Of a DNA stretch of 64,000 bases, positions 8,867 to 27,619 are shown in pieces. Below the pieces are notes generated by a model. It ran no database searches. It saw only the letters and a program-made list of their open reading frames with translations, and was not told the origin of the DNA. Positions within the stretch are counted from its first letter, which is position 1. Each line of letters begins with the position of its first letter. Origin of the DNA: Halostella limicola. GTDB taxonomy: Archaea; Halobacteriota; Halobacteria; Halobacteriales; Natronoarchaeaceae. The position numbers and the translations under genes are program-made. The stretch is taken from positions 1-64,000 of the forward strand of contig NZ_RCDI01000004.1 of NCBI RefSeq assembly GCF_003675875.1, written 5' to 3'.

Positions 8867-9535
8867 TTACTCGAACCGGACGCCGAGGTCGTGCATCCCG
8901 TCGTTGTTCATCGCGAGGTTGATCAGAAGCGGCGTCACGCTCTCGACGACCCCGCTGTTCGCGAGCGGACCGCCGTCCAGCGCCCGGATCCCCTCCACGT
9001 CCTCGGCCACCCGCCTGACCGTCCGCTTCGCGTCGGCGTCGTCGCCGGTGACGACGACGTCGGCGTTCAGGTCGTTGTCGAGATCGCTGAGCGCGCCCGC
9101 CGCGAGGTTCTGGAACGCGCCGACGACCGGCACGTCGTCCGGCGCGACCGCCGCGATGGCCTCCGCCACGGTTCCCTCCGCGGGCGGGTCGTAGTGGAAC
9201 CCCGACGCGTCCCTGTCCATGCTGACCGCCGGGCTGACGAGGACGTCCTCGTCGTCGAGGACCGGCGCGACCGCTTCGACGGTGTCGGGGGCGTACTCGG
9301 GCGGGACGCTGACGACGACGACGTCGGCCAGTTCCGCCGCCGTCTCGTTGCCGTAGCCGGCGACGTCGGGGGTGACGCCGCGGTCTTTCAGCAGCGAGTA
9401 GTACTCGTTCGCCTTCTGCTCGGCCTTGTCGGACTTCCGCGAGCCGACGATGACCGAGTGGTCGGAGTCGCGGGCCCAGCGTAGCGCGAGCCCTTCGCCG
9501 ATGTCACCAGTTCCGCCGAGGAGTGCGATCTCCAT
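8867..9535 (-). CDS. npdG: F420H2:NADP oxidoreductase
   Basis: 222 aa. It exchanges hydride between F420 and NADP(H), linking the F420 pool to NADPH. The N-terminal Rossmann motif GGTGDIGEGLALRWA and the 2'-phosphate-binding VGSRKSDKAEQKA mark NADP binding; VVVVSVPPEYAPDTVEAVAP and SGVVESVTPLLINLAMNN are family blocks, the latter near the F420 site. Length matches the family. ATG 9535 lies about 30 nt after a TATA-like TAACGTTTTG (9562-9570). It is divergent from the first Mo-hydroxylase pair, and its presence fits the CofH-like, CofC and LLM genes in the window. Confidence 0.88.
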   Translation of the reverse strand: MEIALLGGTGDIGEGLALRWARDSDHSVIVGSRKSDKAEQKANEYYSLLKDRGVTPDVAGYGNETAAELADVVVVSVPPEYAPDTVEAVAPVLDDEDVLVSPAVSMDRDASGFHYDPPAEGTVAEAIAAVAPDDVPVVGAFQNLAAGALSDLDNDLNADVVVTGDDADAKRTVRRVAEDVEGIRALDGGPLANSGVVESVTPLLINLAMNNDGMHDLGVRFE

Positions 9536-9724: not shown

Positions 9725-10297
9725 GTGTCAGACGCGCCGAAACCTAACGGAGGAATTACCGTGGAAATCCAACTCACCATCAACGACGAACCGACGAGCG
9801 CGGAGGTCGGTCCCGACGACGACCTGGCGACGGTACTGAGACGGAACGGCTACACCGGCGTGAAGTGCGGCTGCGACGGCGGCGTCTGCGGCGCGTCGAA
9901 GGTGTTCGTAAACGACGAGGTGCGCATGGCCTGCGGCGTGGACGCCCGCGACGCGGACGACGCGGAGATAGAGACGATCGAGAGCCTGGGGAGCCAGGAC
10001 GACCTCCACCCCATCCAGGAGGCGTTCGTGGACCACTTCGCCGTGCAGTGCGGCTTCTGCATCCCCGGGATGATCATCGAGGCGAAGTCGCTGCTCGCGG
10101 ACAACCCGGACCCCTCCGAGGCGGAGGTCCGCGAGGCCATCGACGACAACCTGTGTCGATGCACCGGCTACCAGAAACCCGTCGAGGCGATCCTCGACGC
10201 GGCCGACCGACTGCGGGACGACCGCTCGGTCGCGGCCGACGGCGGTCCCGAGGCCGGGCCGACGAACGGCGCCGACGACGGTGATACCGATGACTGA
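9725..10297 (+). CDS. Molybdenum hydroxylase 2Fe-2S subunit, paralogue 1
   Basis: 190 aa electron-transfer subunit of a xanthine dehydrogenase/aldehyde oxidase-type enzyme. The N-terminal plant-ferredoxin domain should hold one [2Fe-2S] cluster with four Cys, but here the motif reads CGCDGGVCGAS...MAC: C50, C55 and C70 are present and the third ligand position (residue 58) is Ser; an extra Cys sits at residue 48. The C-terminal domain has the normal second-cluster ligands QCGFCIPGM and NLCRCTGYQKPVEAI, and the Gln before the first Cys that contacts the Mo cofactor. GTG 9725 is used as start. The end overlaps the large-subunit start by 8 bp. Paralogue 2 (13101) has the normal third Cys. Confidence 0.88.
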   Translation: MSDAPKPNGGITVEIQLTINDEPTSAEVGPDDDLATVLRRNGYTGVKCGCDGGVCGASKVFVNDEVRMACGVDARDADDAEIETIESLGSQDDLHPIQEAFVDHFAVQCGFCIPGMIIEAKSLLADNPDPSEAEVREAIDDNLCRCTGYQKPVEAILDAADRLRDDRSVAADGGPEAGPTNGADDGDTDD

Positions 10298-12737
10298 CGA
10301 ACCGACAGACCCCAAGCCCGACGGCGGTACCGCGTCCCAGCCGACGACCGAGGAGCCGGACGACTTCGAGGAGCACCCGCTCGAGTGGGACGAGCCGGCG
10401 AACAACGACAAGGCGCCCGACGAGCGAAAGAGCGTCTCGCAACCGGCCGAGAAGTTCGACGACCGGAAGCTCGTCACCGGCGAGGCGAAGTACACCGCGG
10501 ACTACGAGGAGCGGTTCCCGGACCTGGCGCACGCCCAGGTCGTGCGGAGCGAGGTCTCGCACGGCCGCGTCACGGCGATCGACACCGACGCGGCCGAGGC
10601 GATGGACGGGGTCCACGCCGTCCTCACGCCGTGGTCCGACGAGGTCCCGGACGCGAAGTACACGAGCGCGGGCCAGTCGTACCCCGAGCCCAGCCCGTGG
10701 GACATGAACGTGCTCAACGAGCACGTGCGCTACGTGGGCGATCCCGTCGCCGCCGTCGCCGCGGAGGACCGGGAGACGGCGGCGGCCGCGGCCAACGCCG
10801 TCGAGGTGGAGTACGAGGAGTACGACCACGTGGTCGACCCCGAGGAGGCGTTCGACGAGGACGCCCCGCAGCTGTTCGATCAGGACGAGGTGGAAAACGA
10901 GATCGTCGGCCACGACTACGACCGCAACCGGATGTCCAACATCGAGGGCGAGATCGGCGACGTGGACGCCGCCCTCGACCGCGACGACGTCCACGTCCAC
11001 GAGACCGAGTGGGAGACGATCCGCCAGTCCCACGCGCAGATCGAGAAGCACACGTCGCTCGCCTACACCGACGAGGACGACCGCACGGTGCTCATCACCA
11101 GCACGCAGGTGCCGAACCACACCCGCCGGCAGCTGGCGCACCTGTTCGACATCCCGATCCGGGACGTCCGCGTGAAGAAGCCCCGCGTCGGCGGGGGCTT
11201 CGGCGGCAAACAGGCAATGGTCGTCGAGCCGATCCCGCTCGCGCTGTCGCTCGCGGCCGACCGACCCGTCATCTACGAGGCCTCCCGCGACGAGGAGTTC
11301 GGCGCCATGCGCTCGCGCCACCCGATGAAAGTCCGGGCGCGGACGGCCGTCACGGACGACGGCGAGATCGAGGCCATCGACCTGTACGCGCTCTCGAACA
11401 CGGGCGCGTACGGGAGCCACGGCATGACGGTCGCCGGCAACGTCGGCAGCAAGCCGATGCCGCTGTACTCGAAGGTGCCGAACGCCCGCTTCGAGGCCGA
11501 CATCGTGCACACGAACACGCCCCAGACCGGCGCGATGCGGGGCTACGGCGCGCCGCAGGGGACGCTCGCGCTCGAAGGCCACCTGGACGAGGTCGCGCGC
11601 GACCTCGATCTCGACCCGATCGAGTTCCGTCGGGACCACTACATGGAGGTCGGTGACCTGGACGAGATCGCCGGCATGATGGGCGGCGAGGGCGCCGAAC
11701 GCCGGATCCGCTCCTGCGGGCTCGACGAGTGCATCGAGCGCGGCAAGGCGGCGATCGGGTGGGACGATATCGACCAGCCTGAAGAGGACCACCTGCACCG
11801 CGGCGTCGGCATGGCGCTGTCGGCGCAGGGGACCGGCGTCGCCGGCGACGAGCTCGGCGCGGCCCAGATCATGATGAACGAGGACGGATCCTTCCACCTC
11901 CAGGTCGGCGGCGTCGACATCGGCACCGGTGCGGACACGGCGTTCATCCAGATCGCCGCGGAGGTGCTCGGCTGCGACGAGGACGACATCATCGTCAAGT
12001 CCTCTGACACCGACAACACGCCGTTCGACTACGGCGCGTACGCCTCCTCGACCACCTACATCAGCGGCATGGCCGTGAAGAAGGCCGCCGAGGACGCCAA
12101 GGAGCGCATCCTCGACTGGGCGTCGCGGATGCTCGACGAGCCCGCGGGGAACCTGGAGACGGAGGACGGCGAGGTGTACAGCGAGGAGACCGGCGACTCG
12201 GTCACGATCGAAGACGTCGGCTACGAGTCGGTGTACGGCCACGACGACCGCGAGCACATCCTCGGGAAAGGCACCCACTCCACGGAGGAGAGCCCCCCGC
12301 CGTTCGCGGCGCAGTTCGCCGACGTCACCGTCGACGAGCGGACGGGCGAGTTCGAGGTGCACAAGCTGGCGGTCGCGGTCGACTGCGGCGTCGCGATCAA
12401 CCCCGGGATGGCCGAAGGGCAGATCGAAGGCGCGAACCACATGAGCTACGAGATGGCCGTCAGCGAAGGGGTCACGGTCGACGACGAGGGGCGCGCCGAG
12501 GTATCCGACTTCGACGAGTACGGCCTCCCCTCGGCGTCGGAGACGCCGCCGATCGAGAGCATCCTCGTCGAAACCCACGAGCCGACCGGCCCGTTCGGCG
12601 CGAAGTCCGTCGCGGAGGTGCCGACCAACACCGTGCCGCCCGCGCTGAGCAACGCCGTCCGCGAGGCGGTCGGCGTCCGCATCAACGAGATGCCGATCAC
12701 CGCGGAGAAGATCAAGGCGAAACTCGACGAGCGGTAA
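10290..12737 (+). CDS. Molybdenum hydroxylase molybdopterin subunit, paralogue 1
   Basis: 815 aa large subunit that binds the MCD/Mo cofactor. After an acidic 50-residue lead come the a/b-hammerhead domain (ARxTADYEERFPDLAHA-type region), then Mo-site loops: VGGGFGGKQAM, GAMRGYGAPQG, VGGVDIGTGAD and, near the end, GPFGAKSVAEVP with the presumed catalytic Glu. The residue after FGGK is Gln, whereas xanthine oxidases have Glu there (Glu802 in the bovine enzyme), so the substrate need not be xanthine. The CO dehydrogenase signature AYRCSF is absent. No FAD subunit is adjacent, so electrons must leave by another protein. ATG 10290 overlaps the small-subunit stop. Confidence 0.88.
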   Translation: MTDEPTDPKPDGGTASQPTTEEPDDFEEHPLEWDEPANNDKAPDERKSVSQPAEKFDDRKLVTGEAKYTADYEERFPDLAHAQVVRSEVSHGRVTAIDTDAAEAMDGVHAVLTPWSDEVPDAKYTSAGQSYPEPSPWDMNVLNEHVRYVGDPVAAVAAEDRETAAAAANAVEVEYEEYDHVVDPEEAFDEDAPQLFDQDEVENEIVGHDYDRNRMSNIEGEIGDVDAALDRDDVHVHETEWETIRQSHAQIEKHTSLAYTDEDDRTVLITSTQVPNHTRRQLAHLFDIPIRDVRVKKPRVGGGFGGKQAMVVEPIPLALSLAADRPVIYEASRDEEFGAMRSRHPMKVRARTAVTDDGEIEAIDLYALSNTGAYGSHGMTVAGNVGSKPMPLYSKVPNARFEADIVHTNTPQTGAMRGYGAPQGTLALEGHLDEVARDLDLDPIEFRRDHYMEVGDLDEIAGMMGGEGAERRIRSCGLDECIERGKAAIGWDDIDQPEEDHLHRGVGMALSAQGTGVAGDELGAAQIMMNEDGSFHLQVGGVDIGTGADTAFIQIAAEVLGCDEDDIIVKSSDTDNTPFDYGAYASSTTYISGMAVKKAAEDAKERILDWASRMLDEPAGNLETEDGEVYSEETGDSVTIEDVGYESVYGHDDREHILGKGTHSTEESPPPFAAQFADVTVDERTGEFEVHKLAVAVDCGVAINPGMAEGQIEGANHMSYEMAVSEGVTVDDEGRAEVSDFDEYGLPSASETPPIESILVETHEPTGPFGAKSVAEVPTNTVPPALSNAVREAVGVRINEMPITAEKIKAKLDER

Positions 12738-13100
12738 CCCGCGGCACTTCTCCCGTCGTTCTCGACACTGCAGTGGCGCGTCGTGTCCGCGTGTGACGTT
12801 TGGCGCGCTCGTGGCGATCGGACCAACCGTTTGCCAACGTCTGTTTGCTCGTCGGGATCGCGGTTCGGACGGCGGGACACCACAGTTATCAGATACTATT
12901 TATTTCCGTGTCCGGACTGAGCTGGGAGATGGAAAGGCGTGTAGTTTCGGCGCTCTGAGCGGTTGAAATAGCCATTTTCTCCGGGGGAGCTCTCACCCTT
13001 CGTATTTTATTCCATATAGTTTCAGTAAAAAACCTCGATAACTATTAAGGCGACGGCGGAGATAGACGCTACAGAGAGACTGCCTATCAAGGTGAGCGTC
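12738..13100. other. Intergenic region between hydroxylase pairs
   Basis: 363 nt with no gene. It holds a TTTGCCA motif at 12830-12836 with a second TTTGC 14 nt on, AT-rich boxes near 12895-12907, and a probable promoter ACTATTAAGG at 13041-13050. A purine-rich GGTGAG precedes the ATG at 13101, so paralogue 2 seems to have its own promoter and a short leader with a ribosome-binding site. Confidence 0.5.
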
Positions 13101-13646
13101 ATGCAAATCGAAATAGATCTCAACGGAGAACGACGGACGTTCGACGCGGCGAAGTCGGACGTCCTGCTGGACGTGTTGCGTCGGAACGGCTACACGGGCC
13201 CGAAGCGGGGGTGCGACACGGGGGCGTGCGGCTTCTGTACGGTGCAGATAGACGGCGACCCGGCGATGTCCTGCGTTACGCCGGTCGCGAAGGTCGACGG
13301 GGCGTCGGTAGAGACGATCGAGGGGCTGGGCGACCAGAGCGACCTCCACCCCATTCAGGAGGCGTTCGTCGACAACTCGGCGCTCCAGTGCGGCTTCTGC
13401 ATCCCGGGGATGATCATGCGCTCGAAGGCGCTGCTGGAGGAGAACCCGGACCCGACGGAGACGGAGGTGCGGGAGGCGCTCTCGGACAACCTCTGTCGGT
13501 GCACCGGGTACAAGAAGATCGTCGAGGCCGTGCTCGACGCGGCGGACCGGATGGACGGCGACGCACCGGTCGCGGCCGACGGCGGGCGGGACCCGGTCGA
13601 CTGCGCGGCCCCGCAATGCCCACACGTGGACGGTGATGCGGAATGA
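13101..13646 (+). CDS. Molybdenum hydroxylase 2Fe-2S subunit, paralogue 2
   Basis: 181 aa. The ferredoxin domain has a complete ligand set, GCDTGACGFCTVQIDGDPAMSC in outline (C38, C43, C46, C58), and the helical domain has QCGFCIPGM and NLCRCTGYKK for the second [2Fe-2S] cluster. A short C-terminal tail contains extra Cys and His (VDCAAPQCPH), seen only in this copy. It passes electrons from the Mo centre of the 13643 subunit. ATG 13101 is chosen over GTG 13092 because the purine-rich GGTGAG sits at proper distance. The end overlaps the next start by 4 bp (ATGA). Confidence 0.9.
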   Translation: MQIEIDLNGERRTFDAAKSDVLLDVLRRNGYTGPKRGCDTGACGFCTVQIDGDPAMSCVTPVAKVDGASVETIEGLGDQSDLHPIQEAFVDNSALQCGFCIPGMIMRSKALLEENPDPTETEVREALSDNLCRCTGYKKIVEAVLDAADRMDGDAPVAADGGRDPVDCAAPQCPHVDGDAE

Positions 13647-16108
13647 GCGACGCGGAGGAGACACAGGAACGTAACGACGGACCCGTCGGCGAACGGGCGG
13701 AGGAGGAGGCCGCGGAGACGGACGCGTTTCCGGGGGACGGCGAGGGCGAGAGCGAAGTGCCGGAGGACGAGCGGACACCCCGCGAGGATCGGGACCACCT
13801 GACCGAGGACGTCGAGAAGGACGACGCCCGGAAGATCGTCACCGGCGAGGCGCGCTACACGGCCGACTACCGCGAGCGCTTCCCCGACCTCGCCGCGGGG
13901 ACGGTGATCCGCAGCGACGTCGCCCACGGCTACGTGACCGATATCGACGCGAGCGAGGCCGAGGCGATGGACGGCGTGTACGCCGTGATCACGCCGTGGG
14001 ACGACGTGGTGCCGGACAAGGCATACTCGAGTTCGGGCCAGTCCTACCCCGAGCCCAGCCCGTGGGACCTGCGCGTCCTCCGGGAGCACGTCCGGTTCGT
14101 CGGCGACCCCGTCGCGGCGGTCGCCGCGGTGGACGGGGAGACGGCGGACCGCGCGGCCCGGAAGGTCGACGTGGAGTACGAGGAGCTGGAGCCCGTCCTC
14201 GACCCCGAGCGGGCGACTGACCCCGACGCGCCGCAGCTGTTCGACCCCGACGAGGTCGAGAACAAGCAGACCGGCGCCGACTACGAGCGCAATCTCGAAT
14301 CGCACTTCGAGGGGGAGATCGGCGACGTCGAGCGCGCGTTCGAGCGCGCGGACGACGAGCGGGTGATCGAGACGGAGTGGGACACGCCGTACCAGTCCCA
14401 CTGCGTCCCCGAGCCCCACACCACGATCGCCCACACGGACGAGGACGACCGGTACTCGTTCATCACGGCCACGCAGGTCCCCTTCCACACGCGCCGCCAG
14501 ATAGCGCACCTGTTCGACGTGCCGATCCGCGACGTGCGGGTGAAGAAGCCGCGCATCGGGGCCGGGTTCGGCGCGAAACAGGAGATGGCGATCGAACCGA
14601 TCGCCTTCGCGCTCCACCTGGCGGCGGACCGACCCGTCAAGCTGGAGATGACCCGGCGCGAGGAGTTCTACGCGCTGCGGTTCCGCCACCCCATGGACAT
14701 GCGGATGAAGACGGCGGTGTCCGAGGACGGCGACATCGAGGCGATGGACCTCTACACGCTGTCGAACTCCGGCGCGTACGGGACCCACGGCATGACCGTC
14801 GCGAACAACGTCGGGACGAAGCCGCTCCCGTTGTACCCGCGGGTACCGAACGTCCGGTTCGAGGGGGACGTCGTCCACACGAACCTCCCGATGGGGGCGG
14901 CGATGCGGGGGTACGGCGCACCCCAGGGCCACTTCGCGGTCGAGGCCCACATGGACGAGGTCGCGCGCCGGCTCGACCTCGACCCGATCGCCTTCCGCGA
15001 GCGCAACGCGGTCCGCGAGGGCGACGTGGACCGGAGCGTCGCCATCCTGAAGGACGGCGACAGGTTCGCCCGCGAGATCCGCTCCTGCGGCCTCCGCGAG
15101 TGCATCGAGCGCGGCCGGGAGGCCGTCGGCTACGACGAGATCGAGCAGCCCGAGGCGGACCACCTGCACCGCGGCGTCGGCATGGCGCTCATCGCGCAGG
15201 GCAGCGGCGTCGCCGGGCGGGAACTCGGCGCGGCCCAGATCAAGATGAACGAAGACGGATCCTTCCACCTCCAGGTCGGCGGCGTCGACACCGGCACCGG
15301 CGCGGACACGATGTTCAGCCAGGTCGCCGCGGAGGTGCTCGGCTGCGAGCCGGAGGACGTCGTCGTCACCGCCGCCGACACCGACCTGACGCCGTTCGAC
15401 TACGGCGCGTACGCCTCCTCGACCACCTACATCAGCGGCCGGGCCGTCAAGAACGCCGCAGAGGACGCCCGGGACCGGCTGCTGCACTGGGCCGCGAAGC
15501 TGCTCGACGAGCCGGCGTCGACCCTCGCCACCGGCGACGGGGAGGTGTACAGCGAGGCGACCGGCGAGAGCGTGACGCTGGAGGAGATCGGCTACGAGGC
15601 GACATACGGTCACGACGAGCGCGAGCACATCCTGGGCAAGGGGAACCACTCGACCGACGAGAGCCCGCCGCCCTACGGCGCGCAGTTCGTCGACGTCACC
15701 GTGGACGAGGATACCGGCGAGTACGAGATAAACGAGATGGTGTTCGCCGCCGACTGCGGCGTCGCCATCAACCCCGCCCTGGTGGAGGGCCAGATCGAAG
15801 GCGGCGAGCACATGAGTCTGGAGTTCGCCACGAGCGGCGGCCTGGAGTTCGACGACGAGGGCAACCCCGAGGTACTCGGGTTCCGGGGGTACGGGATGCC
15901 GCGCACGACCGACCACCCGCCGATGGAGACGATCGTCGTCGAGACCCACGAACCGACCGGTCCCTTCGGCGCGAAGTCGATCGCCGAGCTGCCCACGAAC
16001 GGCGTCCCGCCCGCGCTCAGCAACGCGATCCGCGACGCCGTCGGGGTCCGCGTGACCAGCCTCCCCATCACCGCCGAGAAGGTGAAGGACGCGCTCGACG
16101 CGAGATGA
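13643..16108 (+). CDS. Molybdenum hydroxylase molybdopterin subunit, paralogue 2
   Basis: 821 aa, clearly homologous end to end with the 10290 product. Mo-site loops: IGAGFGAKQEM (Ala for Gly at two positions compared with paralogue 1), GAAMRGYGAPQG, VGGVDTGTGAD and GPFGAKSIAELP with the presumed catalytic Glu. The residue after FGAK is Gln. TRREEFYALRFRHP keeps the Arg near the substrate pocket. The acidic N-terminal extension of about 55 residues differs from paralogue 1. The gene overlaps the small subunit (ATGA) and is followed after 68 nt by the dsrE-like gene. In bacterial SDMH loci the equivalent is XdhD or nicotinate/purine hydroxylase; the substrate is probably a purine or other N-heterocycle, by context only. 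Confidence 0.88.
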   Translation: MSDAEETQERNDGPVGERAEEEAAETDAFPGDGEGESEVPEDERTPREDRDHLTEDVEKDDARKIVTGEARYTADYRERFPDLAAGTVIRSDVAHGYVTDIDASEAEAMDGVYAVITPWDDVVPDKAYSSSGQSYPEPSPWDLRVLREHVRFVGDPVAAVAAVDGETADRAARKVDVEYEELEPVLDPERATDPDAPQLFDPDEVENKQTGADYERNLESHFEGEIGDVERAFERADDERVIETEWDTPYQSHCVPEPHTTIAHTDEDDRYSFITATQVPFHTRRQIAHLFDVPIRDVRVKKPRIGAGFGAKQEMAIEPIAFALHLAADRPVKLEMTRREEFYALRFRHPMDMRMKTAVSEDGDIEAMDLYTLSNSGAYGTHGMTVANNVGTKPLPLYPRVPNVRFEGDVVHTNLPMGAAMRGYGAPQGHFAVEAHMDEVARRLDLDPIAFRERNAVREGDVDRSVAILKDGDRFAREIRSCGLRECIERGREAVGYDEIEQPEADHLHRGVGMALIAQGSGVAGRELGAAQIKMNEDGSFHLQVGGVDTGTGADTMFSQVAAEVLGCEPEDVVVTAADTDLTPFDYGAYASSTTYISGRAVKNAAEDARDRLLHWAAKLLDEPASTLATGDGEVYSEATGESVTLEEIGYEATYGHDEREHILGKGNHSTDESPPPYGAQFVDVTVDEDTGEYEINEMVFAADCGVAINPALVEGQIEGGEHMSLEFATSGGLEFDDEGNPEVLGFRGYGMPRTTDHPPMETIVVETHEPTGPFGAKSIAELPTNGVPPALSNAIRDAVGVRVTSLPITAEKVKDALDAR

Positions 16109-16143
16109 GGCCTGCGGGCGGGGAGCCGCACAATCGAACGAAC

Positions 16144-16152
16144 GCTTATTAC
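16144..16152 (+). promoter_or_regulatory. TATA box of the dsrEFH-xdhC/yqeB operon
   Basis: GCTTATTAC centred about 29 nt before the ATG at 16177, fitting a leaderless transcript and so an operon separate from the hydroxylase genes. Confidence 0.6.
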
Positions 16153-16176
16153 CGGCGAAACGAATAGAGCCAACAT

Positions 16177-16548
16177 ATGGCACACCTGGGGTTTCTCCTC
16201 ACCGGCGGCCCGTTCGACAGCGAGCGGTGGCGAACGGCGTACGAGCTGGGAAGGGCGGCGCTGGACGAGGGTCACGAGGTCTCGTACTTCCACTACCTCG
16301 ACGGCGCTCTCGTCCCGGTCGAGGGGCAGTCGTTCCCGGACTGCTCCGACAGCGGCCTGTACACCGAGATGCCGACGGAGAAGTTCCAGGAGCTCGTCGA
16401 CGACGGCGCCGACGTGATCTGCTGTGGCCTCTGCGTCGACGCGCGCGGCATCGACGCGCCCGACGACTACCCCGAGGGCGTCGAGGTCGGGCTCCTCCCA
16501 GATCTGGCGGACATCGTCGGGGAAGCGGACCGGGTGGTCTCGCTATGA
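16177..16548 (+). CDS. DsrE/TusD-like sulfurtransferase subunit
   Basis: 123 aa DsrE-like fold. It begins MAHLGFLLTGGPFDSERWRTAYELGRAALDEGHEVSYFHY, in outline the first strand, the phosphate-like loop and helix of the family, and has the cluster ICCGLCVDARGID (C82, C83, C86) where the sulfur-carrying Cys of DsrE/TusD lies. DsrEFH/TusBCD complexes relay persulfide sulfur between carriers such as TusA and DsrC. It is the first gene of a four-gene overlapping operon; the stop overlaps the next start (ATGA). A link to XdhC-YqeB downstream suggests a role in feeding sulfur or selenium to the Mo cofactor; that part is inference. Confidence 0.72.
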   Translation: MAHLGFLLTGGPFDSERWRTAYELGRAALDEGHEVSYFHYLDGALVPVEGQSFPDCSDSGLYTEMPTEKFQELVDDGADVICCGLCVDARGIDAPDDYPEGVEVGLLPDLADIVGEADRVVSL

Positions 16549-16898
16549 AGCGAGACGTCGTCGTGTTGCTGACCAAGGCACCGTACGGCCGCGTTCACGT
16601 CCCGGAGGGCCTCCGGGCGGCCCGCGGCGTCGCCGCCGGGTTCGACCAGCACGACGTCACCGTTGCGTTCACGCGCGACGCCGCCTACGCAGCGCGAGCG
16701 GCCGTCGACCGGGACGCCCTCAATATGCACGGGCACGTCGCCGACCTGCTGGAGCAGGGCGGGGAGATGGTCGTCGACGCCGCCGCGATGTCGGAGCGCG
16801 GCGTCGACCCCGCGGAGATAGCCGACGACGTGTCGGTCCGCTCCGGCGACGAGATAGCGACCATGATCCGAACCGCCGACCGCACACTGGACTTCTGA
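16545..16898 (+). CDS. DsrF/TusC-like protein
   Basis: 117 aa. The start MKRDVVVLLTKAPYGRVHVPEGLRAARGVAA (read as segments) matches the TusC/DsrF pattern of a beta strand, AP-x-G loop and EGL helix. No Cys is present, which is common for the DsrF subunit. It would form the DsrEFH heterohexamer with its neighbours. The start lies inside the dsrE stop (ATGA) and the gene ends 2 nt before dsrH, so co-translation is likely. Confidence 0.7.
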   Translation: MKRDVVVLLTKAPYGRVHVPEGLRAARGVAAGFDQHDVTVAFTRDAAYAARAAVDRDALNMHGHVADLLEQGGEMVVDAAAMSERGVDPAEIADDVSVRSGDEIATMIRTADRTLDF

Positions 16899-16900
16899 CA

Positions 16901-17146
16901 ATGCTGTACCTGATAGACGAACCAATGGCCGATATCGGACTCCGAACAGCCGCCGGCGACCCGGAAGCCGTCGTCGTCCTGCTACAGGACGGCGTCTACC
17001 TGACGCCCGAGATCGACGCGGACCTCTACGCCGTCGAGAAGGACGTCGCCGTCCGGGGCGTCGACCTCCCGACGGAGATCGAGTCGGTGTCATACGACGC
17101 CGTGGTGGAACTGATAGTCGAGAACGAGGTGAAGAACTTCGCATGA
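16901..17146 (+). CDS. DsrH/TusB-like protein
   Basis: 81 aa. MLYLIDEPMADIGLRTA and VVLLQDGVYL match the DsrH/TusB pattern (start MLh, then LLLLQDGV). The Cys that carries sulfur in DsrH is missing; the protein has no Cys, so here it may be structural. It completes a DsrE-DsrF-DsrH set. Its stop overlaps the ATG of the XdhC-YqeB gene (17143-17146, ATGA), the strongest sign that the trio works with Mo-cofactor chalcogen insertion. Confidence 0.7.
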   Translation: MLYLIDEPMADIGLRTAAGDPEAVVVLLQDGVYLTPEIDADLYAVEKDVAVRGVDLPTEIESVSYDAVVELIVENEVKNFA

Positions 17147-18726
17147 GCGTGTTCGACCGAGTGACGGAGCTGAAGGAGCGCGGCGAGCCGGCCGCCATGC
17201 TGACGATCGTCGAGAAGGACGGGAGCGCGCCCCGGGACGTCGGCGACCGGATGCTCGTCACCGCGGACGACGAGTACGGGACGATCGGCGGCGGAACCGT
17301 CGAGCACCTCGCCGTTGAGGACGCGCGAGCGGTGCTCGCGGACGAGGCCGTCCCCGGCGTCAGGACCTACGAGCTCGAACCCGGTGGCAACACCGGCATG
17401 GTCTGTGGCGGGTCGATGGACGTCTTCGTCGAGCGGATACGCGGGAGGGCACGGCTCTACGTCGCCGGCGCCGGCCACATCAGCGTCGAACTGGCCCCGC
17501 TCGCACAGCGGCTGGGCTACGACGTGACGGTCGTCGACGACCGCGAGGAGTACGCCGACCCCGAGAACTTCCCGGACGCGACGGACGTGATCCACGGGGA
17601 CTACGGGGAGACACTGTCGGAACTGCCGATGACCGCCGAGACCTCCGTGGCCGTCGCGACCCGGAGCGGGACGTTCGACCGGCGCGCCGTCGCCGCCGCG
17701 CTCGACGGCGGCGCGGGCTACGTGGGCCTCGTCGCCAGCGAGACGAAGACGGACCACGTCGTCGAGTCGCTCGCCGAGGAGGGGTACGACCGCCGCGACC
17801 TCGCCCGCGTCAGGGCGCCGGTCGGCCTCGACCTCGGCGGGAGCGGCCCGGCGGACGTCGCGCTCGCGATCCTCTCGGAGGTGAACGCGGACCGCTACGG
17901 CGCCTCCGGGCGGCGTGCGACGCGGCTGGACCTCGACGACCTCGTCGTGGTCCGGGGCGGCGGCGACCTCGGGAGCGGCGTCGTCTACCGGCTGCATCAG
18001 GCGGGGTTCCCGGTCGTGGTGACGGAGGTCCCGCGGCCGACCGTCGTCCGGCGGGCGGTGGCGTTCGGCGCCGCGATGTACGAGGACGAGGTCTCGATCG
18101 AGGGCGTCGACGCCCGGCGGGCCGCGGACGTGGACGAGGCGATCGGGGTCCTCGAAGACGACGCAGTGCCGGTGCTCGCGGACCCGGACGCCGCGATCGC
18201 GTCGGAGCTCGACGCGGCCGTGCTCGTCGACGCGATCATGGCGAAGGGACGCACAGACACCGGAACGCGCCGCGACGACGCGGACGTGGTTATCGGCCTC
18301 GGACCCGGGTTCGAGGCCGGCGAGGACGTCGACGCGGTGGTCGAGACCGACCGCGGGCACGAGCTCGGGCGGGCCATCTACGAGGGGCGGGCGAACCCGT
18401 ACGACGGAGAACCGGGCGAGCGCCGCGGCTACACGCACGAGCGCGTGCTGCGCGCCCCCGGCGAGGGGCCGTGGGAGCCGGTCGTCGAGATCGGCGACCT
18501 CGTGTCCGCGGGCGACACCGTCGGTCACGTCGGTGAACGCGCCGTGAAAAGCGAGATAGACGGCCTCGTGCGCGGGCTCGTCCACGCCGGGCTCGACGTC
18601 GAAGAGGGGACGAAACTCGGCGACGTCGACCCGCGCGGCGAGGACGTCGACCCCGCGAAGATATCGGACAAGGCGCTCTGTCTCGGCGGCGGCGCGCTGG
18701 AGGCCGTGCTGAAGCTCAGCGACTGA
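17143..18726 (+). CDS. XdhC-YqeB fusion, Mo-cofactor sulfur/selenium maturation protein
   Basis: 527 aa, two known families fused. Residues 1-240 are XdhC/CoxI: AMLTIVEKDGSAPRDVGDRM, TIGGGTVE, GMVCGGSMDVF (Cys88), then a Rossmann domain from RLYVAGAGHISVELAPLA. XdhC binds the Mo cofactor and promotes its sulfuration before insertion. Residues about 265-527 match YqeB (EF2563 family), beginning LVVVRGGGDLGSGVVYRLHQAGF and ending ISDKALCLGGGALEAVL; YqeB is a marker of selenium-dependent Mo hydroxylase loci. In bacteria these are separate genes. It is last in the dsrEFH operon and overlaps the convergent selD by 11 bp at the 3' ends. The cytoplasmic role is preparing a chalcogen-ligated cofactor for the two hydroxylases. 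Confidence 0.86.
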   Translation: MSVFDRVTELKERGEPAAMLTIVEKDGSAPRDVGDRMLVTADDEYGTIGGGTVEHLAVEDARAVLADEAVPGVRTYELEPGGNTGMVCGGSMDVFVERIRGRARLYVAGAGHISVELAPLAQRLGYDVTVVDDREEYADPENFPDATDVIHGDYGETLSELPMTAETSVAVATRSGTFDRRAVAAALDGGAGYVGLVASETKTDHVVESLAEEGYDRRDLARVRAPVGLDLGGSGPADVALAILSEVNADRYGASGRRATRLDLDDLVVVRGGGDLGSGVVYRLHQAGFPVVVTEVPRPTVVRRAVAFGAAMYEDEVSIEGVDARRAADVDEAIGVLEDDAVPVLADPDAAIASELDAAVLVDAIMAKGRTDTGTRRDDADVVIGLGPGFEAGEDVDAVVETDRGHELGRAIYEGRANPYDGEPGERRGYTHERVLRAPGEGPWEPVVEIGDLVSAGDTVGHVGERAVKSEIDGLVRGLVHAGLDVEEGTKLGDVDPRGEDVDPAKISDKALCLGGGALEAVLKLSD

Positions 18727-19744
18727 TCCGCTCTATCGTCGGGTCCGAGAGCGCGACACCGGATCCCTCCGTGACGCGGCCGACCCGCCAGTAGAAGACG
18801 CCGGCGTCGTCGAGGCGCGCTTCGAGGTCGGCGGCGCGCTCGTCAGGGACCGACAGCAGCAGGCCGCCGCTCGTCTCCGCGCTCTCGCCGTCCTCCAGCC
18901 CGTAGCCGAACAGCCGGGAGAGCTCCGGGCTCCCCGCCACGACCGGTAGCCGCGTCACCTCGACCCCGACGCCGGAGTTCTCCGCGAGGACCCGGGCCTG
19001 CCCGGCGAGGCCGAACCCGGTGACGTCCGTCGCCGCGGTCGCGAGGCCCCGCGCGGCCGCGGCGGCGTCGCGATTCGGGGTCGTCATCCAGGCCAGCGCC
19101 TCGTTGCCGATCCGCTCGACGGGCCGGCCCGCGGTCTCCCGCACGAGGTCACCGAACTCGTCGTCGGAGACGCGGAGCGCGCCCATCGCCGACTGCGTCC
19201 CCAGCGGTTTCGTGAGGTACAGGCGGTCGCCGGGCGTCGCCCCGCGCGAGGTGAGCAGGTCCTCGGGCGCGGCCGTCGCCGAGACGGCCCCGCCGGCGAA
19301 GGGCCACGGGTTCGTGATCGTGTGACCGCCGGCGACCACGCCGCCCATCCGGTCGATGGCGTCGGTGATGCCGGCCAAGATCGCGGGCGCCGCCTCGGTC
19401 ACCGCCCGCGGGAGCCCGAGGACGACGAGACAGTCGAGGTTCTCCGTCGCCCCGGTCGCGAAGGCGTCGCTGGCGGCGTTGCACGCGGCGACGCGGCCGA
19501 AGTCGTACGGGTCGTCGACGATCGGGGTGAAGAAGTCGACCGTCGAGACCAGCGCCAGGTCGTCGGTCAGCCGCCGCGCCGCGGCGTCCTCGCCGACGCC
19601 GAACAGGAGCTCGTCTCGGTCCTCGGTCAGGCCCGCTTCCCCGAGCAGCGAGTCGAGTTCGCCCTGGCCGACCTTGCAGGAACAGCCGTGCAGGTCGGCG
19701 TACTCGGTGAGGCGGACGGGCCCGTCGTCGGGGGTGTCGGCCAT
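18716..19744 (-). CDS. selD: Selenophosphate synthetase (selenide, water dikinase)
   Basis: 342 aa, of usual length. It makes selenophosphate from selenide and ATP. The N-terminal catalytic motif LHGCSCKVGQGEL has Cys21 and Lys24, matching Cys17 and Lys20 of the E. coli enzyme, with Cys rather than selenocysteine. The Mg/ATP sites show DDLALVSTVDFFTPIVDDPYDFG and NAASDAFATGA, and later VVAGGHTI and ATDVTGFGLAGQA. No selA, selB or tRNA-Sec gene is visible in the window, so in this context it is an orphan SelD of the type linked to selenium-dependent Mo hydroxylases. It starts 3 nt after the TusA-like gene, forming an operon with it. Confidence 0.93.
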   Translation of the reverse strand: MADTPDDGPVRLTEYADLHGCSCKVGQGELDSLLGEAGLTEDRDELLFGVGEDAAARRLTDDLALVSTVDFFTPIVDDPYDFGRVAACNAASDAFATGATENLDCLVVLGLPRAVTEAAPAILAGITDAIDRMGGVVAGGHTITNPWPFAGGAVSATAAPEDLLTSRGATPGDRLYLTKPLGTQSAMGALRVSDDEFGDLVRETAGRPVERIGNEALAWMTTPNRDAAAAARGLATAATDVTGFGLAGQARVLAENSGVGVEVTRLPVVAGSPELSRLFGYGLEDGESAETSGGLLLSVPDERAADLEARLDDAGVFYWRVGRVTEGSGVALSDPTIERISR

Positions 19745-19747
19745 CGA

Positions 19748-19996
19748 TCACCCCTCCGGTATCTCGGCGTCCTCGGTCACCTCGATGTGCAGCTCGAAGG
19801 CGTCGCCGTCGCCGCTCTCCTCGGCGTCGGTGACGACGAACCCGCGCTTGCGACACATGCGGCGGAGGTTGCGCTCCGCGGGCGGGTAGTCGCCACGCAC
19901 TTGGAGTTCGTCGCCCGCCTCCAGTTCGGACAGCTGCTGACGGACGATCAGCGCCGGGCGGGGGCAGATCTCGCCGCGGACATCCACGCGCGTCAT
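19748..19996 (-). CDS. TusA/YedF-like sulfur (selenium) carrier, paralogue 1
   Basis: 82 aa TusA-fold protein. The motif GEICPRPALIVRQQL carries the conserved CPxP Cys (Cys11) that bears persulfide in TusA. A second conserved-looking Cys sits at residue 48 in DYPPAERNLRRMCRKRGF, a segment shared with the second paralogue (33062). It is co-transcribed with selD (3-nt gap), as yedF is in bacterial selenium loci, so it may carry selenium or sulfur for SelD or for the Mo cofactor. ATG 19996 matches the family N-terminus. The cargo is inferred. Confidence 0.8.
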   Translation of the reverse strand: MTRVDVRGEICPRPALIVRQQLSELEAGDELQVRGDYPPAERNLRRMCRKRGFVVTDAEESGDGDAFELHIEVTEDAEIPEG

Positions 19997-20060
19997 GTGC
20001 GACCAATACGCGGACCGTTCGCAAAACGGTATCGGCTCGGGCCCCGCAGCGTGCGCCACA

Positions 20061-20070
20061 AAGGTATTTG
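20061..20070 (+). promoter_or_regulatory. TATA-like box of yqeC
   Basis: AAGGTATTTG centred about 28 nt before the ATG at 20094, in the 97-nt divergent region between the TusA-like gene and yqeC. Confidence 0.5.
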
Positions 20071-20093
20071 TCCCCCGGCGCGGGAGAGGAAGT

Positions 20094-20870
20094 ATGCGAC
20101 TGTCCGACGCGCTGGAGCTCGGCGACCGGGAGCTCGTCGCGTTCGTCGGGGCCGGCGGGAAGAAGACGGCGATGCGGCGGCTCGCGTCGGAGGGCGACGA
20201 GCGCGGCCGCGACGTGGGCTACACGACGACCACGCAGATGCCGCCCCCGCCCGACCTCCCGCTGACGGTGACGGACCTGAACGCGCATCCGTACGCGCTC
20301 GCCGAGCGCGAGCCCCCGGTCGCGTTCGCGAGGGAGTGGGTGCGCGACCCGGAGCGGGTCGACCGCAAGGTGCGGGGCTTCGACCCCTCGACGCTGAAGT
20401 CGGCGTTCGACAGGGGGACGTTCGACTGGCTCCTCGTGAAGGCCGACGGCGCGCGCATGCGGGAGTTCAAAGCGCCCGGCTCCGGCGAACCGGTCGTGCC
20501 GGAGGGGACGACCCGCGTCGTCCCGGTCGCCTCCGTCGCGGCCGTCGGGGAACCGCTCACGGCGGAGGCGGTCCATCGCCCCGAGCGCGTCGCGTCGATC
20601 GCCGGGTGCTCCGTCGGCGACACGATCACCCCGGAGGTCGTCGGAGCGGTGCTCGCCAGTCGGGACGGCGGACTGAAGCACGCGCCCGACTCGGCGACCG
20701 TCACGCCGGTCGTGAACAAGGCCGACACGCCCGACGCGCGGGAGACCGCGCGGGCGATCCTGGAACGCGCGTTCGAGGGTACTGCCCGGTTCTCGCGGGG
20801 GCTCGTGACGTCGTTCGAGGCGGACGTCTGCCTCGCCGTGGACGGCCGCCCGCCCCGTCGACGGGCCTGA
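20094..20870 (+). CDS. yqeC: YqeC-like selenium-dependent hydroxylase accessory protein
   Basis: 258 aa. The start DRELVAFVGAGGKKTAMRRLA holds the P-loop-like GAGGKKT (residues 19-25) of the YqeC family; later blocks are VGYTTTTQMPPP, WLLVKADGARMREFKAPGSGEPVVP, TRVVPVASVAAVGEPL and VTPVVNKADTP (an NKxD-like element). YqeC occurs almost only in loci with SelD, YqeB and Mo hydroxylases; its biochemical role is unknown but the motifs suggest nucleotide binding. It is divergent from selD and followed 80 nt downstream by the cysteine-synthase-like gene. Confidence 0.82.
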   Translation: MRLSDALELGDRELVAFVGAGGKKTAMRRLASEGDERGRDVGYTTTTQMPPPPDLPLTVTDLNAHPYALAEREPPVAFAREWVRDPERVDRKVRGFDPSTLKSAFDRGTFDWLLVKADGARMREFKAPGSGEPVVPEGTTRVVPVASVAAVGEPLTAEAVHRPERVASIAGCSVGDTITPEVVGAVLASRDGGLKHAPDSATVTPVVNKADTPDARETARAILERAFEGTARFSRGLVTSFEADVCLAVDGRPPRRRA

Positions 20871-20950
20871 CCGACGAAGTCCCCCTGTCCGCCGACAGTT
20901 CCTGCCGTCACCACGGAATACTTTTGTTTCGCCGGTGAGATCCTCACCGA

Positions 20951-21997
20951 ATGACCGTGAGAGATCCGAGTGCGGACGGCGAGGGGACCCACATCTTCGA
21001 CTGCATCGGCGACACGCCGCTGGTCGAACTGGAGAACGCGAGCGCGGGCGTCGACGCGACGATCTACGCGAAACTGGAGTTCGTCAACCCGTCGGGGAGC
21101 GTCAAGGACCGCATCTACCGCGAGATGATCACCGCCGCGGAGGAACGGGGCGACCTCGACGGCGACACGGAGATCCTGGAGTGCTCGACGGGCAACGCCG
21201 GGATCGCCTGCACGTTCGTCGGGACGAGGCTCGGCTACGACGTGACGATCGTCATGCCGGAGGGGATGAGCGAGGAGCGCAAGAAGTGCATCCGAGCGTA
21301 CGGCGGGACGCTCGTCGAGACGCCGGGCGGCGAGAGCGACGTCGACCTCGCCATGGACCGCGTCGACGAGCTCCGCGAGGAGAACCCCGGCCGCTACTGG
21401 TTCCCCAACCAGTTCAGCAACGCGGACAACCCGGCGGCTCACGAGAAGACGACCGGCCCGGAGATCCTCGACCAGCTCGGGGGAGCGCCGGACGCGTTCG
21501 TCGCCGGGCAGGGGACCGGTGGGACAGTCACCGGCGTCGGCCGCGCGCTCGTCGACGAGGACCCCGACACCGCGATATACGCGCTCGAACCCGCCGAGGC
21601 GCCGCTGCTCTCCTGCAAGCAGTGGGGCACGCACGAGATCGAGGGCATCGGCGACGGGTTCGTCCCGGAGAACCTGGACCCGACCCTCATGGACGGCGTG
21701 GTGTCGCTCGAGAGCCAGGCGGCCATCGACAGGGCCCGCTCGCTGGCCGAGTCCGAGGGGATCTTCTGCGGGATATCGAGCGGCGCGAACGTGGAGGGCT
21801 GCCGCCGCCTCGCGGAGGAGCGAGAGGACGTCGACGAGATCGTCACGATCATCTGCGACACCGGCCACCGGTACTTCACGACGAAGCTCTTCGAACCCGA
21901 CCACGAAATCGACGTCCCCGACCGCGACCACCCCCTCGACGACTACTCGAAGGAGGTACTGGCGGAACACCAGGACGACTGGCACATCGTGGAGTAG
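20951..21997 (+). CDS. PLP-dependent cysteine synthase family protein
   Basis: 348 aa, fold-type II PLP enzyme of the O-acetylserine sulfhydrylase / cystathionine beta-synthase group. IGDTPLVELENA, FVNPSGSVKDRIYREMI (PLP Lys), CSTGNAGIACTFVG and AGQGTGGTVTGVGRAL are the family's substrate and phosphate loops. ATG 20951 is about 28 nt after TATA-like AATACTTTTG (20918-20927). It lies between yqeC and mocA. Cysteine synthesis, or handling of sulfide/selenide for the adjacent system, are both possible. E. coli SDMH loci carry a different PLP enzyme (YgeX, diaminopropionate ammonia-lyase), so a lyase role is another option. Confidence 0.8.
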   Translation: MTVRDPSADGEGTHIFDCIGDTPLVELENASAGVDATIYAKLEFVNPSGSVKDRIYREMITAAEERGDLDGDTEILECSTGNAGIACTFVGTRLGYDVTIVMPEGMSEERKKCIRAYGGTLVETPGGESDVDLAMDRVDELREENPGRYWFPNQFSNADNPAAHEKTTGPEILDQLGGAPDAFVAGQGTGGTVTGVGRALVDEDPDTAIYALEPAEAPLLSCKQWGTHEIEGIGDGFVPENLDPTLMDGVVSLESQAAIDRARSLAESEGIFCGISSGANVEGCRRLAEEREDVDEIVTIICDTGHRYFTTKLFEPDHEIDVPDRDHPLDDYSKEVLAEHQDDWHIVE

Positions 21998-22033
21998 GAA
22001 AAGAACCAGTACGGTTCGCCTCGAAGCGACGGT

Positions 22034-22678
22034 ATGCCCAACGCTCAAAACGTTCGCTCCGACGCCGCGGAGGGAGACCGGAACGACGGGCCGCGCCGGG
22101 TGGGCGGCGTGGTGCTCGCGGCGGGGAGGAGCAGCCGCTTCGAGGGCGGGAACAAGCTCCTCGCGGAGGTCGACGGCGTCCCCATCGTCGAGCGCGCGAC
22201 CCGGACGCTGCGCGAGTCGACCGTCGACGACGTCGCGGTCGTCGTCGGGCACGAGGCGTCGGCGGTCACCGACGCGCTCGCCGGGGTCGACGCGTCGGTT
22301 CTCCGGAACGAGAACTACGACGAGGGCCAGAGCACCTCGGTGCGGATCGGCGTCGAACTCGCCGAGCAGGAGGGCTGGGACGCCGTCGTCTTCATGCTCG
22401 GGGACATGCCGTTCGTCAGCCCGTCCACCGTCGACGCGGTGCGGGACGCGTACGAGGCGGGCGACGGAACGATCGTCGCCCCCGCGTACGAGGGGAAGCG
22501 AGGGAACCCCGTCCTGTTCGGACAGCCCCACTTCGACGACCTCGCGGCCGTCACCGGCGACCGGGGCGGTCGGCGGCTCATCGAGGAGTCCCCGGACGCT
22601 GCGCTCGTCGAGACCGACGACCCGGGCGTCACGAGAGACGTCGACTACGAGGCCGATCTGACCGCGTACACGGAGTGA
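22034..22678 (+). CDS. mocA: Molybdenum cofactor cytidylyltransferase, MocA-like
   Basis: 214 aa nucleotidyltransferase. After a 23-residue lead, GGVVLAAGRSSRFEGGNKLLAEVDG is the nucleotide-binding signature, followed by NENYDEGQSTSVRIGV, VVFMLGDMPFVSPSTVDAV (metal-binding Asp) and GNPVLFG. MocA attaches CMP to Mo-molybdopterin to give the MCD form used by bacterial xanthine dehydrogenase-type enzymes; the YgfJ branch belongs to SDMH loci. It lies 36 nt after the cysteine-synthase-like gene, probably in one transcript, and serves the hydroxylases at 9725-16108. Confidence 0.82.
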   Translation: MPNAQNVRSDAAEGDRNDGPRRVGGVVLAAGRSSRFEGGNKLLAEVDGVPIVERATRTLRESTVDDVAVVVGHEASAVTDALAGVDASVLRNENYDEGQSTSVRIGVELAEQEGWDAVVFMLGDMPFVSPSTVDAVRDAYEAGDGTIVAPAYEGKRGNPVLFGQPHFDDLAAVTGDRGGRRLIEESPDAALVETDDPGVTRDVDYEADLTAYTE

Positions 22679-26004: not shown

Positions 26005-26113
26005 CTCCCGCGAGGCGCGGTCGTGGCCGGCCCGGCGTCGCCGAGACGCCGGCGGCTGCGATCGCCGACTGCCGAGTTGTCGAACTGCATAGTGGAGAGT
26101 GCAGTTCGCCGAT

Positions 26114-26123
26114 GAAATAGTTT
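26114..26123 (-). promoter_or_regulatory. TATA-like box upstream of adenine deaminase
   Basis: AAACTATTTC on the minus strand, 28 nt before an out-of-frame ATG at 26090; see the adenine deaminase entry. Confidence 0.45.
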
Positions 26124-26179
26124 GGTGTGAAATACCGTGCCACAACCGGCGACCCGGGACGGTCCTTCGGACGAACGGG

Positions 26180-27565: not shown

Positions 27566-27594
27566 GTGCTGCCGGTTAGCATAGACAGGAGACC

Positions 27595-27604
27595 AATATA
27601 AATT
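27595..27604 (-). promoter_or_regulatory. TATA box of the NCS2 permease gene
   Basis: AATTTATATT on the minus strand, about 35 nt before the ATG at 27565. Confidence 0.55.
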
Positions 27605-27619
27605 TCTTACCACTCATTT

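What the first reader, a model, noticed from the sequence alone, without database searches (positions are those of the whole stretch)
9725..22678. Selenium-dependent molybdenum hydroxylase island with an orphan SelD in a haloarchaeon
Sequence shows, in one 13-kb run: two Mo-hydroxylase pairs, an XdhC-YqeB protein, SelD (Cys21/Lys24), a TusA/YedF-like carrier, YqeC and MocA. YqeB, YqeC and orphan SelD are the known markers of the SDMH selenium trait (described for E. coli, Enterococcus and Haloarcula). That this genome uses selenium in its Mo cofactor, rather than in selenocysteine, is inferred: no Sec machinery is visible in the window and the formate dehydrogenase has Cys.
Basis: partly seen in the sequence, partly recalled or inferred. 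Interest (0 to 1): 0.85.

Follow-up and report, generated by a model that had tools for sequence, protein, structure and literature searches.

The report
Selenium-cofactor purine hydroxylase island, haloarchaeal megaplasmid
This salt-loving archaeon carries, probably on a megaplasmid, the known gene set for putting selenium into molybdenum enzymes that break down purines, and in every relative examined that set also contains an overlooked trio of sulfur-relay-like proteins that appears to have been adopted for selenium.

Summary
The window has two molybdenum-hydroxylase pairs, an XdhC-YqeB fusion, SelD, TusA, YqeC and a MocA-like protein; SelD, YqeB and YqeC score above curated cut-offs. The genome has one SelD and no SepSecS, YbbB or tRNA-Sec above cut-off. 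The trait itself is not new: Haft & Self (2008), Zhang (2008) and Lin (2015) described it for Haloarcula and Halobacteriales.

It was present in all 33 distinct islands examined, with 4-bp overlaps in 24 of 24 measured. In 292 Halobacteria genomes, SelD, YqeB and the first DsrE gene occur in the same 23. DsrC/TusE, the relay's usual endpoint, is in none, and full-length YedF is absent from the phylum sample. SelD-free haloarchaea carry a related purine hydroxylase without these genes, in a separate clade. Two Natronococcus genomes retain decayed pieces of the selenium core where the selenium-free enzyme now sits.

Most likely: a selenium-cofactor purine hydroxylase system in which TusA and the trio act as a chalcogen relay. 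Selenium chemistry is untested. A new variant of a known kind.

The parts
9725..10297 (+). CoxS1: [2Fe-2S] subunit of Mo hydroxylase 1
   Evidence: Pfam Fer2_2 3e-31
10281..12737 (+). CoxL1: Mo-binding subunit 1; orthologues (>=77% identity) occur only in the 23 SelD+ genomes of 292
   Evidence: Pfam MoCoBD_1/2, best NCBIfam XdhA 675 bits (below cut-off 780); distribution
13092..13646 (+). CoxS2: [2Fe-2S] subunit of Mo hydroxylase 2
   Evidence: NCBIfam matches
13643..16108 (+). CoxL2: Mo-binding subunit 2; relatives also exist in SelD-free haloarchaea, as a separate clade
16177..16548 (+).
   Evidence: Pfam DsrE 1e-19; PDB 2hy5_A DsrE; alignment
16545..16898 (+). DsrE2 (DsrF/TusC-like), no conserved Cys
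   Evidence: TIGR03010 2.5e-5; PDB 2hy5_B DsrF 7e-7
16901..17146 (+). DsrH/TusB-like, no conserved Cys
   Evidence: Pfam DsrH 5e-7; TIGR03011 1.4e-7; PDB TM0979 1.5e-8
17143..18726 (+). XdhC-YqeB fusion: Moco-insertion (XdhC) domain plus SDMH maturation domain
   Evidence: TIGR03309 360 bits, XdhC_C 1e-36; model pLDDT 80.6, XdhC structures 2we7/2we8, BCCP-like domain at 432-496
18716..19744 (-). SelD, selenide water dikinase, the only one in the genome
   Evidence: TIGR00476 276 bits; C21/K24 invariant
19748..19996 (-). TusA-type carrier directly upstream of SelD (single domain, not full YedF)
   Evidence: Pfam TusA 1e-17; TIGR03527 only 31 bits against cut-off 110
20094..20870 (+). YqeC, SDMH marker
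   Evidence: TIGR03172 193 bits over 73
20951..21997 (+). PLP enzyme, cysteine-synthase-like; optional member of the island
   Evidence: Pfam PALP 2.5e-70; TIGR01136 339 bits, just under 344; found at the same place in few relatives
22034..22678 (+). MocA-like molybdopterin cytidylyltransferase
   Evidence: TIGR03310 best, 148 bits, below 186
6191..8785 (-). PhnDCE-type ABC transporter beside the island; SBP at 7880-8785 best matches the putative selenate SBP family
   Evidence: TIGR04553 189 bits (below 250), TIGR01098 175 bits over 112; recurs beside many relatives
8867..9535 (-). NpdG, NADPH-dependent F420 reductase, recurrent neighbour
   Evidence: TIGR01915 239 bits over 150
24331..26145 (-). 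adenine deaminase (start uncertain)
   Evidence: TIGR01178 480 bits over 472.5
26180..27613 (-). xanthine permease PbuX
   Evidence: TIGR03173 448 bits over 414

Best explanation
This is a selenium-dependent molybdenum hydroxylase (SDMH) island for purine catabolism in a haloarchaeon, probably on a megaplasmid. SelD makes selenophosphate. XdhC-YqeB, with YqeC, exchanges the terminal oxo or sulfido ligand of the molybdenum cofactor (made as a cytosine dinucleotide by the MocA-like protein) for selenium and inserts it into two CoxS-CoxL hydroxylases, most likely a purine/hypoxanthine hydroxylase and a xanthine dehydrogenase, fed by adenine deaminase and the purine permeases. The DsrE1-DsrE2-DsrH trio, built like the DsrEFH/TusDCB heterohexamer and coupled to XdhC-YqeB, together with the TusA coupled to SelD, most likely carries selenium as a protein-bound perselenide on DsrE1 Cys83 (and TusA Cys), doing the job that the fused TusA-DsrE protein YedF is thought to do in bacteria. 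Shown: gene content, conservation, co-occurrence, absence of the Sec/SeU genes tested, absence of DsrC/TusE, and the selenium-free counterpart enzymes. Inferred: selenium in the cofactor, the direction of transfer, the substrates, and the role of the trio.
For: SDMH markers above cut-off. Single SelD, no SepSecS, YbbB or tRNA-Sec above cut-off; no SepSecS in any of the 23 SelD+ genomes. SelD, YqeB and DsrE1 are in the same 23 of 292 genomes, and CoxL1 orthologues (>=77%) only in those. Trio + XdhC-YqeB + SelD + TusA are in all 33 distinct loci, with 4-bp overlaps DsrE1/DsrE2 and DsrH/XdhC in 24 of 24. The trio's homology matches subunit by subunit. DsrC/TusE in 0 of 23; full YedF over cut-off in 0 of 295. 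SelD-free genomes hold a CoxS2L2-like pair, mostly beside purine genes, where detected with the XdhC half only and none of YqeB, SelD, trio or TusA; these hydroxylases form their own clade. Decayed DsrE1 and XdhC pieces lie beside a selenium-free hydroxylase in two Natronococcus genomes. Purine neighbours. C. difficile selD and yqeB mutants lose xanthine and uric acid use (PMC11448449).
Against: No measurement of selenium. The hydroxylases do not reach the cut-off of any substrate-specific family, including Se_dep_XDH (265 and 292 bits, cut-off 830). Co-occurrence of linked genes inherited as one island in few lineages is not independent evidence. In DsrH and DsrE2 no Cys is conserved, so a three-protein relay like the sulfur one cannot apply unchanged. 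YqeC was dispensable in C. difficile. The DsrE1 model has low confidence (pLDDT 58).
Confidence: 0.62

Rival explanations
1. The island is a true SDMH system, but the DsrE-DsrE-DsrH trio handles sulfur, not selenium: it supplies or removes sulfur (for example for the cofactor's dithiolene, or to clear sulfide and persulfide so that selenium wins at the Mo site).
For: TusA in E. coli feeds sulfur to Moco synthesis, and TusBCD/DsrEFH are sulfur carriers (PMC5372717). The trio is coupled to XdhC-YqeB rather than to SelD. DsrE2 and DsrH lack conserved Cys.
Against: The trio is absent from haloarchaea that make the selenium-free version of the same enzyme, which need the same sulfur steps. DsrC/TusE is missing.
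Confidence: 0.25
2. The hydroxylases are ordinary Mo=S enzymes and SelD/YqeB serve some other, unknown use of selenium.
For: Selenium-free haloarchaeal relatives exist without SelD. No selenium measurement exists here.
Against: Selenium-linked hydroxylases form clades separate from the SelD-free ones, CoxL1 is confined to SelD+ genomes, and YqeB is needed for SDMH-dependent growth in C. difficile.
Confidence: 0.08
3. The island detoxifies or reduces selenate/selenite, and the hydroxylases are the reductase.
For: A selenate-type SBP gene lies next door; E. coli ygfKMN was linked to selenate reduction (discussed in PMC2276186).
Against: SelD and the purine deaminase and permease genes are not explained; Haft & Self considered and disfavoured this reading.
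Confidence: 0.04

Closest known systems
SDMH selenium-cofactor trait, Haloarcula marismortui pNG700 (Haft & Self 2008; Zhang et al. 2008)
   Same: Same genes in the same order: CoxSL1, CoxSL2, DsrE, DsrE, DsrH, XdhC-YqeB, SelD(-), TusA(-), YqeC, MocA; orphan SelD; megaplasmid.
   Different: The window has NpdG upstream, a cysteine-synthase-like gene before MocA, the PhnDCE genes on the other side, and adenine deaminase and permeases downstream. The passages of the papers that I read do not mention the DsrE/DsrH genes.
YedF (TIGR03527) of bacterial selenium users
   Same: TusA domain next to SelD plus a DsrE domain with a CGxC motif (motif described in PMC5322559).
   Different: Separate proteins here, with two extra subunits; TusA scores 31 bits against the cut-off of 110; DsrE1 resembles TusD more than YedF.
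TusBCD / DsrEFH sulfur-relay complex
   Same: Three subunits homologous one to one in the same gene order D(E)-C(F)-B(H); a Cys at the likely DsrE catalytic position.
   Different: All three are below the curated cut-offs, no Cys in DsrH, no DsrC/TusE in the genomes, embedded in a selenium island.
E. coli yqeB-yqeC-ygfJ purine region; C. difficile xanthine/urate SDMH
   Same: YqeB, YqeC, MocA-like protein, Mo hydroxylases and purine context.
   Different: The haloarchaeal enzymes have no FAD subunit in any island examined; SelD is orphan and inside the cluster.

Membership tests
SDMH selenium-cofactor trait | YqeB (TIGR03309) above cut-off | tested here: met
   360 bits against 220
SDMH selenium-cofactor trait | YqeC (TIGR03172) above cut-off | tested here: met
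   193 bits against 73
SDMH selenium-cofactor trait | SelD with catalytic Cys and Lys | tested here: met
   276 bits against 125; C21, K24 invariant
SDMH selenium-cofactor trait | YgfJ/MocA (TIGR03310) | tested here: inconclusive
   best family but 148 bits, below the cut-off of 186
SDMH selenium-cofactor trait | Mo hydroxylase subunits clustered with the markers | tested here: met
SDMH selenium-cofactor trait | SelD orphan: no selenocysteine or selenouridine system | tested here: met
   no SepSecS, YbbB or tRNA-Sec over cut-off; archaeal SelB, PSTK and split SelU not tested
SDMH selenium-cofactor trait | labile selenium in the purified hydroxylase | not testable with these tools
   needs ICP-MS or 75Se labelling
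Se_dep_XDH equivalog (TIGR03311) | score above cut-off | tested here: not met
   265 and 292 bits against 830 for the large subunits
YedF (TIGR03527) | fused TusA + DsrE protein above cut-off | tested here: not met
   TusA 31 bits against 110; 0 of 295 genomes of the phylum sample over cut-off
TusBCD/DsrEFH | three homologous subunits in order D-C-B / E-F-H | tested here: met
TusBCD/DsrEFH | subunits above curated NCBIfam cut-offs | tested here: not met
   TusD 20/89, TusC 24/94, TusB 32/49 bits
TusBCD/DsrEFH | catalytic Cys in the DsrE/TusD subunit | tested here: inconclusive
   C83 invariant in 13 of 13, and its spacing to RG fits the TusD/DsrE Cys by eye; the DsrE1 model is poor
TusBCD/DsrEFH | Cys in the DsrH/TusB subunit (DsrH Cys20, my knowledge) | tested here: not met
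   no conserved Cys in 13 sequences
TusBCD/DsrEFH | partner DsrC/TusE (TIGR03342) in the genome | tested here: not met
   0 of 23; control rings in E. coli

The most novel reading that the evidence does not exclude
A DsrEFH/TusBCD-type sulfur-relay complex has been converted into a dedicated selenium carrier for cofactor assembly: TusA and DsrE1 hand perselenide to SelD and/or XdhC-YqeB. In haloarchaea it replaces bacterial YedF, and it is gained and lost together with selenium use, leaving gene fossils where a selenium-free hydroxylase took over.
Probability: 0.42. Interest if true: 0.72.

Novelty: new variant of a known kind. Interest (0 to 1): 0.5.

Why it matters
How selenium reaches the molybdenum of SDMHs is unknown; of the maturation candidates only YqeB has clear genetic support (PMC11448449). 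Haloarcula species carry the same island and can be cultured, so the trio gives three candidate genes to delete, and the paired selenium-linked and selenium-free purine hydroxylases of haloarchaea give a natural comparison of what selenium requires. Lin et al. 2015 reported that YedF is absent from archaea; the trio plus TusA would fill that gap.

Tried and rejected
Split-YedF by homology alone: DsrE1 scores TusD (best 7e-5) ahead of YedF (best 0.14, 4 of 11 members), so I keep 'does the job of YedF' as inference only. A YedF reference sequence was sought on the Peptoclostridium plasmid and in the phylum sample; none was over cut-off. YqeB as a biotin carrier: the C-terminal domain (432-496) matches a biotin carrier fold (Z 11.2, rmsd 1.1), but the Lys of the loop (K469) is not conserved, so biotinylation is unlikely. 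Parts of YqeB between the XdhC half and that domain were not searched alone, so nothing is claimed about their fold. The DsrE1 model (pLDDT 58) and its fold matches (best 2hy5_A DsrE at E 4e-3) were not relied on. The cysteine-synthase-like gene as a core part: rejected, it is in few relatives. Distant DsrE proteins (~30% identity): two whose surroundings could be read lie with rhodaneses, away from SDMH genes; the Aeromonas record carried no annotation.
Full report
WHAT IS THERE. Next is the XdhC-YqeB fusion (17143-18726). SelD (18716-19744) and TusA (19748-19996) are on the - strand. YqeC (20094-20870), a cysteine-synthase-like enzyme (20951-21997) and a MocA-like protein (22034-22678) follow on the + strand. 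YqeB, YqeC and SelD exceed curated NCBIfam cut-offs; the MocA-like protein and the hydroxylases do not exceed the cut-off of any specific family.

GENOME-WIDE CHECK. The assembly (4.1 Mb, 9 contigs, 99.9% complete; the window is the first 64 kb of a 450-kb contig) has one SelD over cut-off, no SepSecS, no YbbB and no tRNA-Sec over cut-off (the three best hits are tRNA-Arg, -Ser and -Thr). SepSecS is also absent from all 23 SelD-bearing haloarchaea found. Archaeal SelB, PSTK and split SelU were not searched. That the contig is a megaplasmid is inferred from its size and from the relatives, whose islands lie on plasmid records.

PRIOR KNOWLEDGE. Haft & Self 2008 (PMC2276186) described this marker set on H. 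marismortui pNG700, including the XdhC-YqeB fusion. Zhang et al. 2008 (PMC2432076) did so independently. Lin et al. 2015 (PMC5322559) state that the archaea using the selenium cofactor are all Halobacteriales lacking Sec and SeU, and that YedF is absent from archaea.

WHAT IS NOT IN THAT LITERATURE, AS FAR AS I COULD FIND. Full-text searches for YedF+SelD+DsrE, DsrEFH+selenophosphate and TusBCD with selenium gave nothing that links the trio to this trait; most subscription papers are not in the library. The three genes match the three subunits of the DsrEFH/TusDCB heterohexamer one to one and in order: DsrE1 to 2hy5_A DsrE and TusD, DsrE2 to 2hy5_B DsrF and TusC, DsrH to TusB and TM0979. They are below curated cut-offs, so this is a divergent subfamily. 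DsrE1 carries an invariant C83-G-L-C86; YedF's DsrE domain is described as having CGXC (PMC5322559). DsrE2 and DsrH have no conserved Cys.

CONSERVATION. In 292 Halobacteria genomes, SelD, YqeB over cut-off and DsrE1 at 62% identity or more are each present in 23, and they are the same 23, from 6 genera. The next DsrE proteins are at most 39% identical, apart from one relic described below. In 33 distinct islands (the 23 plus Haladaptatus, Natrinema sp. DC36 and eight loci found with DsrE1) the trio, XdhC-YqeB, SelD and TusA are all present; in one short contig (L078) the trio is not directly next to XdhC-YqeB. DsrE1/DsrE2 and DsrH/XdhC overlap by 4 bp in 24 of 24 measured, which suggests translational coupling. 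These genes travel as one block, so the co-occurrence is not many independent events. DsrC/TusE, the acceptor of the sulfur relay, is in none of the 23, and full-length YedF is over cut-off in none of 295 genomes of the phylum sample.

THE SELENIUM-FREE COUNTERPART. CoxL1 orthologues (at least 77%) occur only in the 23 SelD+ genomes. About 20 SelD-free haloarchaea have one CoxS2L2-like pair; most lie beside adenine deaminase, PbuX or 5'-deoxyadenosine deaminase. Where an XdhC is found nearby it aligns only to the XdhC half, and YqeB, SelD, trio and TusA are missing. In a 73-row tree the selenium-free enzymes form one clade (support 100), apart from the CoxL1 and CoxL2 clades; the tree is unrooted and quick. 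Seventeen positions separate the two groups, several near the GVDIG motif; whether they touch the Mo site was not modelled.

FOSSILS. In Natronococcus jeotgali (L063/L082) the first 34 codons of DsrE1 (88% identity) run straight into XdhC codons 37-52 (81%), wedged between a selenium-free hydroxylase and adenine deaminase. In a second genome of the same genus (L086) a shorter, frameshifted DsrE1 start lies at the same place (DNA-level matches to E 1e-22 for the first, about 1e-9 for the second). Both hydroxylases fall in the selenium-free clade. The simplest reading is that the selenium core was deleted and a selenium-free enzyme took its place.

CONTEXT AND MECHANISM. Nearby are adenine deaminase and xanthine permease (over cut-off), a second permease-like gene, an allantoate-amidohydrolase-type gene and 5'-deoxyadenosine deaminase, which supports purines as substrates. 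No FAD subunit was found in any island, while NpdG (over cut-off), CofC (over cut-off) and an F420-type oxidoreductase are in the window, so F420 as electron acceptor is possible but untested. The AlphaFold model of XdhC-YqeB (pLDDT 80.6) matches XdhC structures over residues 1-255 (Z 18 to 20) and a biotin-carrier-type domain over 432-496 (Z 11.2, rmsd 1.1), whose carrier Lys is not conserved. My proposal is that TusA and DsrE1 carry selenium as perselenide, SelD activates it, and XdhC-YqeB loads it onto the Mo. The gene arrangement (trio overlapping XdhC-YqeB, TusA next to SelD) is shown; the transfers are inferred. A sulfur-handling role for the trio is the main rival.

VERDICT. The trio, its absence from the selenium-free counterparts and the fossils are the new parts: a new variant of a known kind.

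Noticed in passing
L063 2317-2468 (Natronococcus jeotgali) and L086 10392-10439: Decayed pieces of DsrE1 (and of XdhC in L063) between a selenium-free Mo hydroxylase and adenine deaminase: apparent loss of the selenium core.
   Followed up: yes
L085-L103: SelD-free haloarchaea carry a related purine hydroxylase pair, in some cases with a plain XdhC nearby; about 17 positions separate these enzymes from the selenium-linked ones.
   Followed up: partly
window 8867-9535, 31947-32591, 1881-2984: F420-related genes (NpdG, CofC, an LLM-type oxidoreductase) flank hydroxylases that lack an FAD subunit; F420 may be the electron acceptor.
   Followed up: partly
window 33062-33322 (-): A second TusA-like gene, 49% identical to the island's TusA, near RidA and 5'-deoxyadenosine deaminase.
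   Followed up: no
window 7880-8785 (-): Substrate-binding protein whose best family is the putative selenate SBP TIGR04553 (189 bits, below 250); the PhnDCE set recurs beside many islands.
   Followed up: partly
window 20951-21997: Cysteine-synthase-like gene inside the island, shared with Halostella pelagica and Haladaptatus halobius but not with most relatives; function in the system unknown.
   Followed up: partly
window 17143-18726, residues 432-496 of the product: YqeB ends in a biotin-carrier-like domain without a conserved carrier lysine.
   Followed up: partly
G031 (same genus as the window's genome): Lacks SelD, YqeB and DsrE1, so the trait is patchy within the genus.
   Followed up: no
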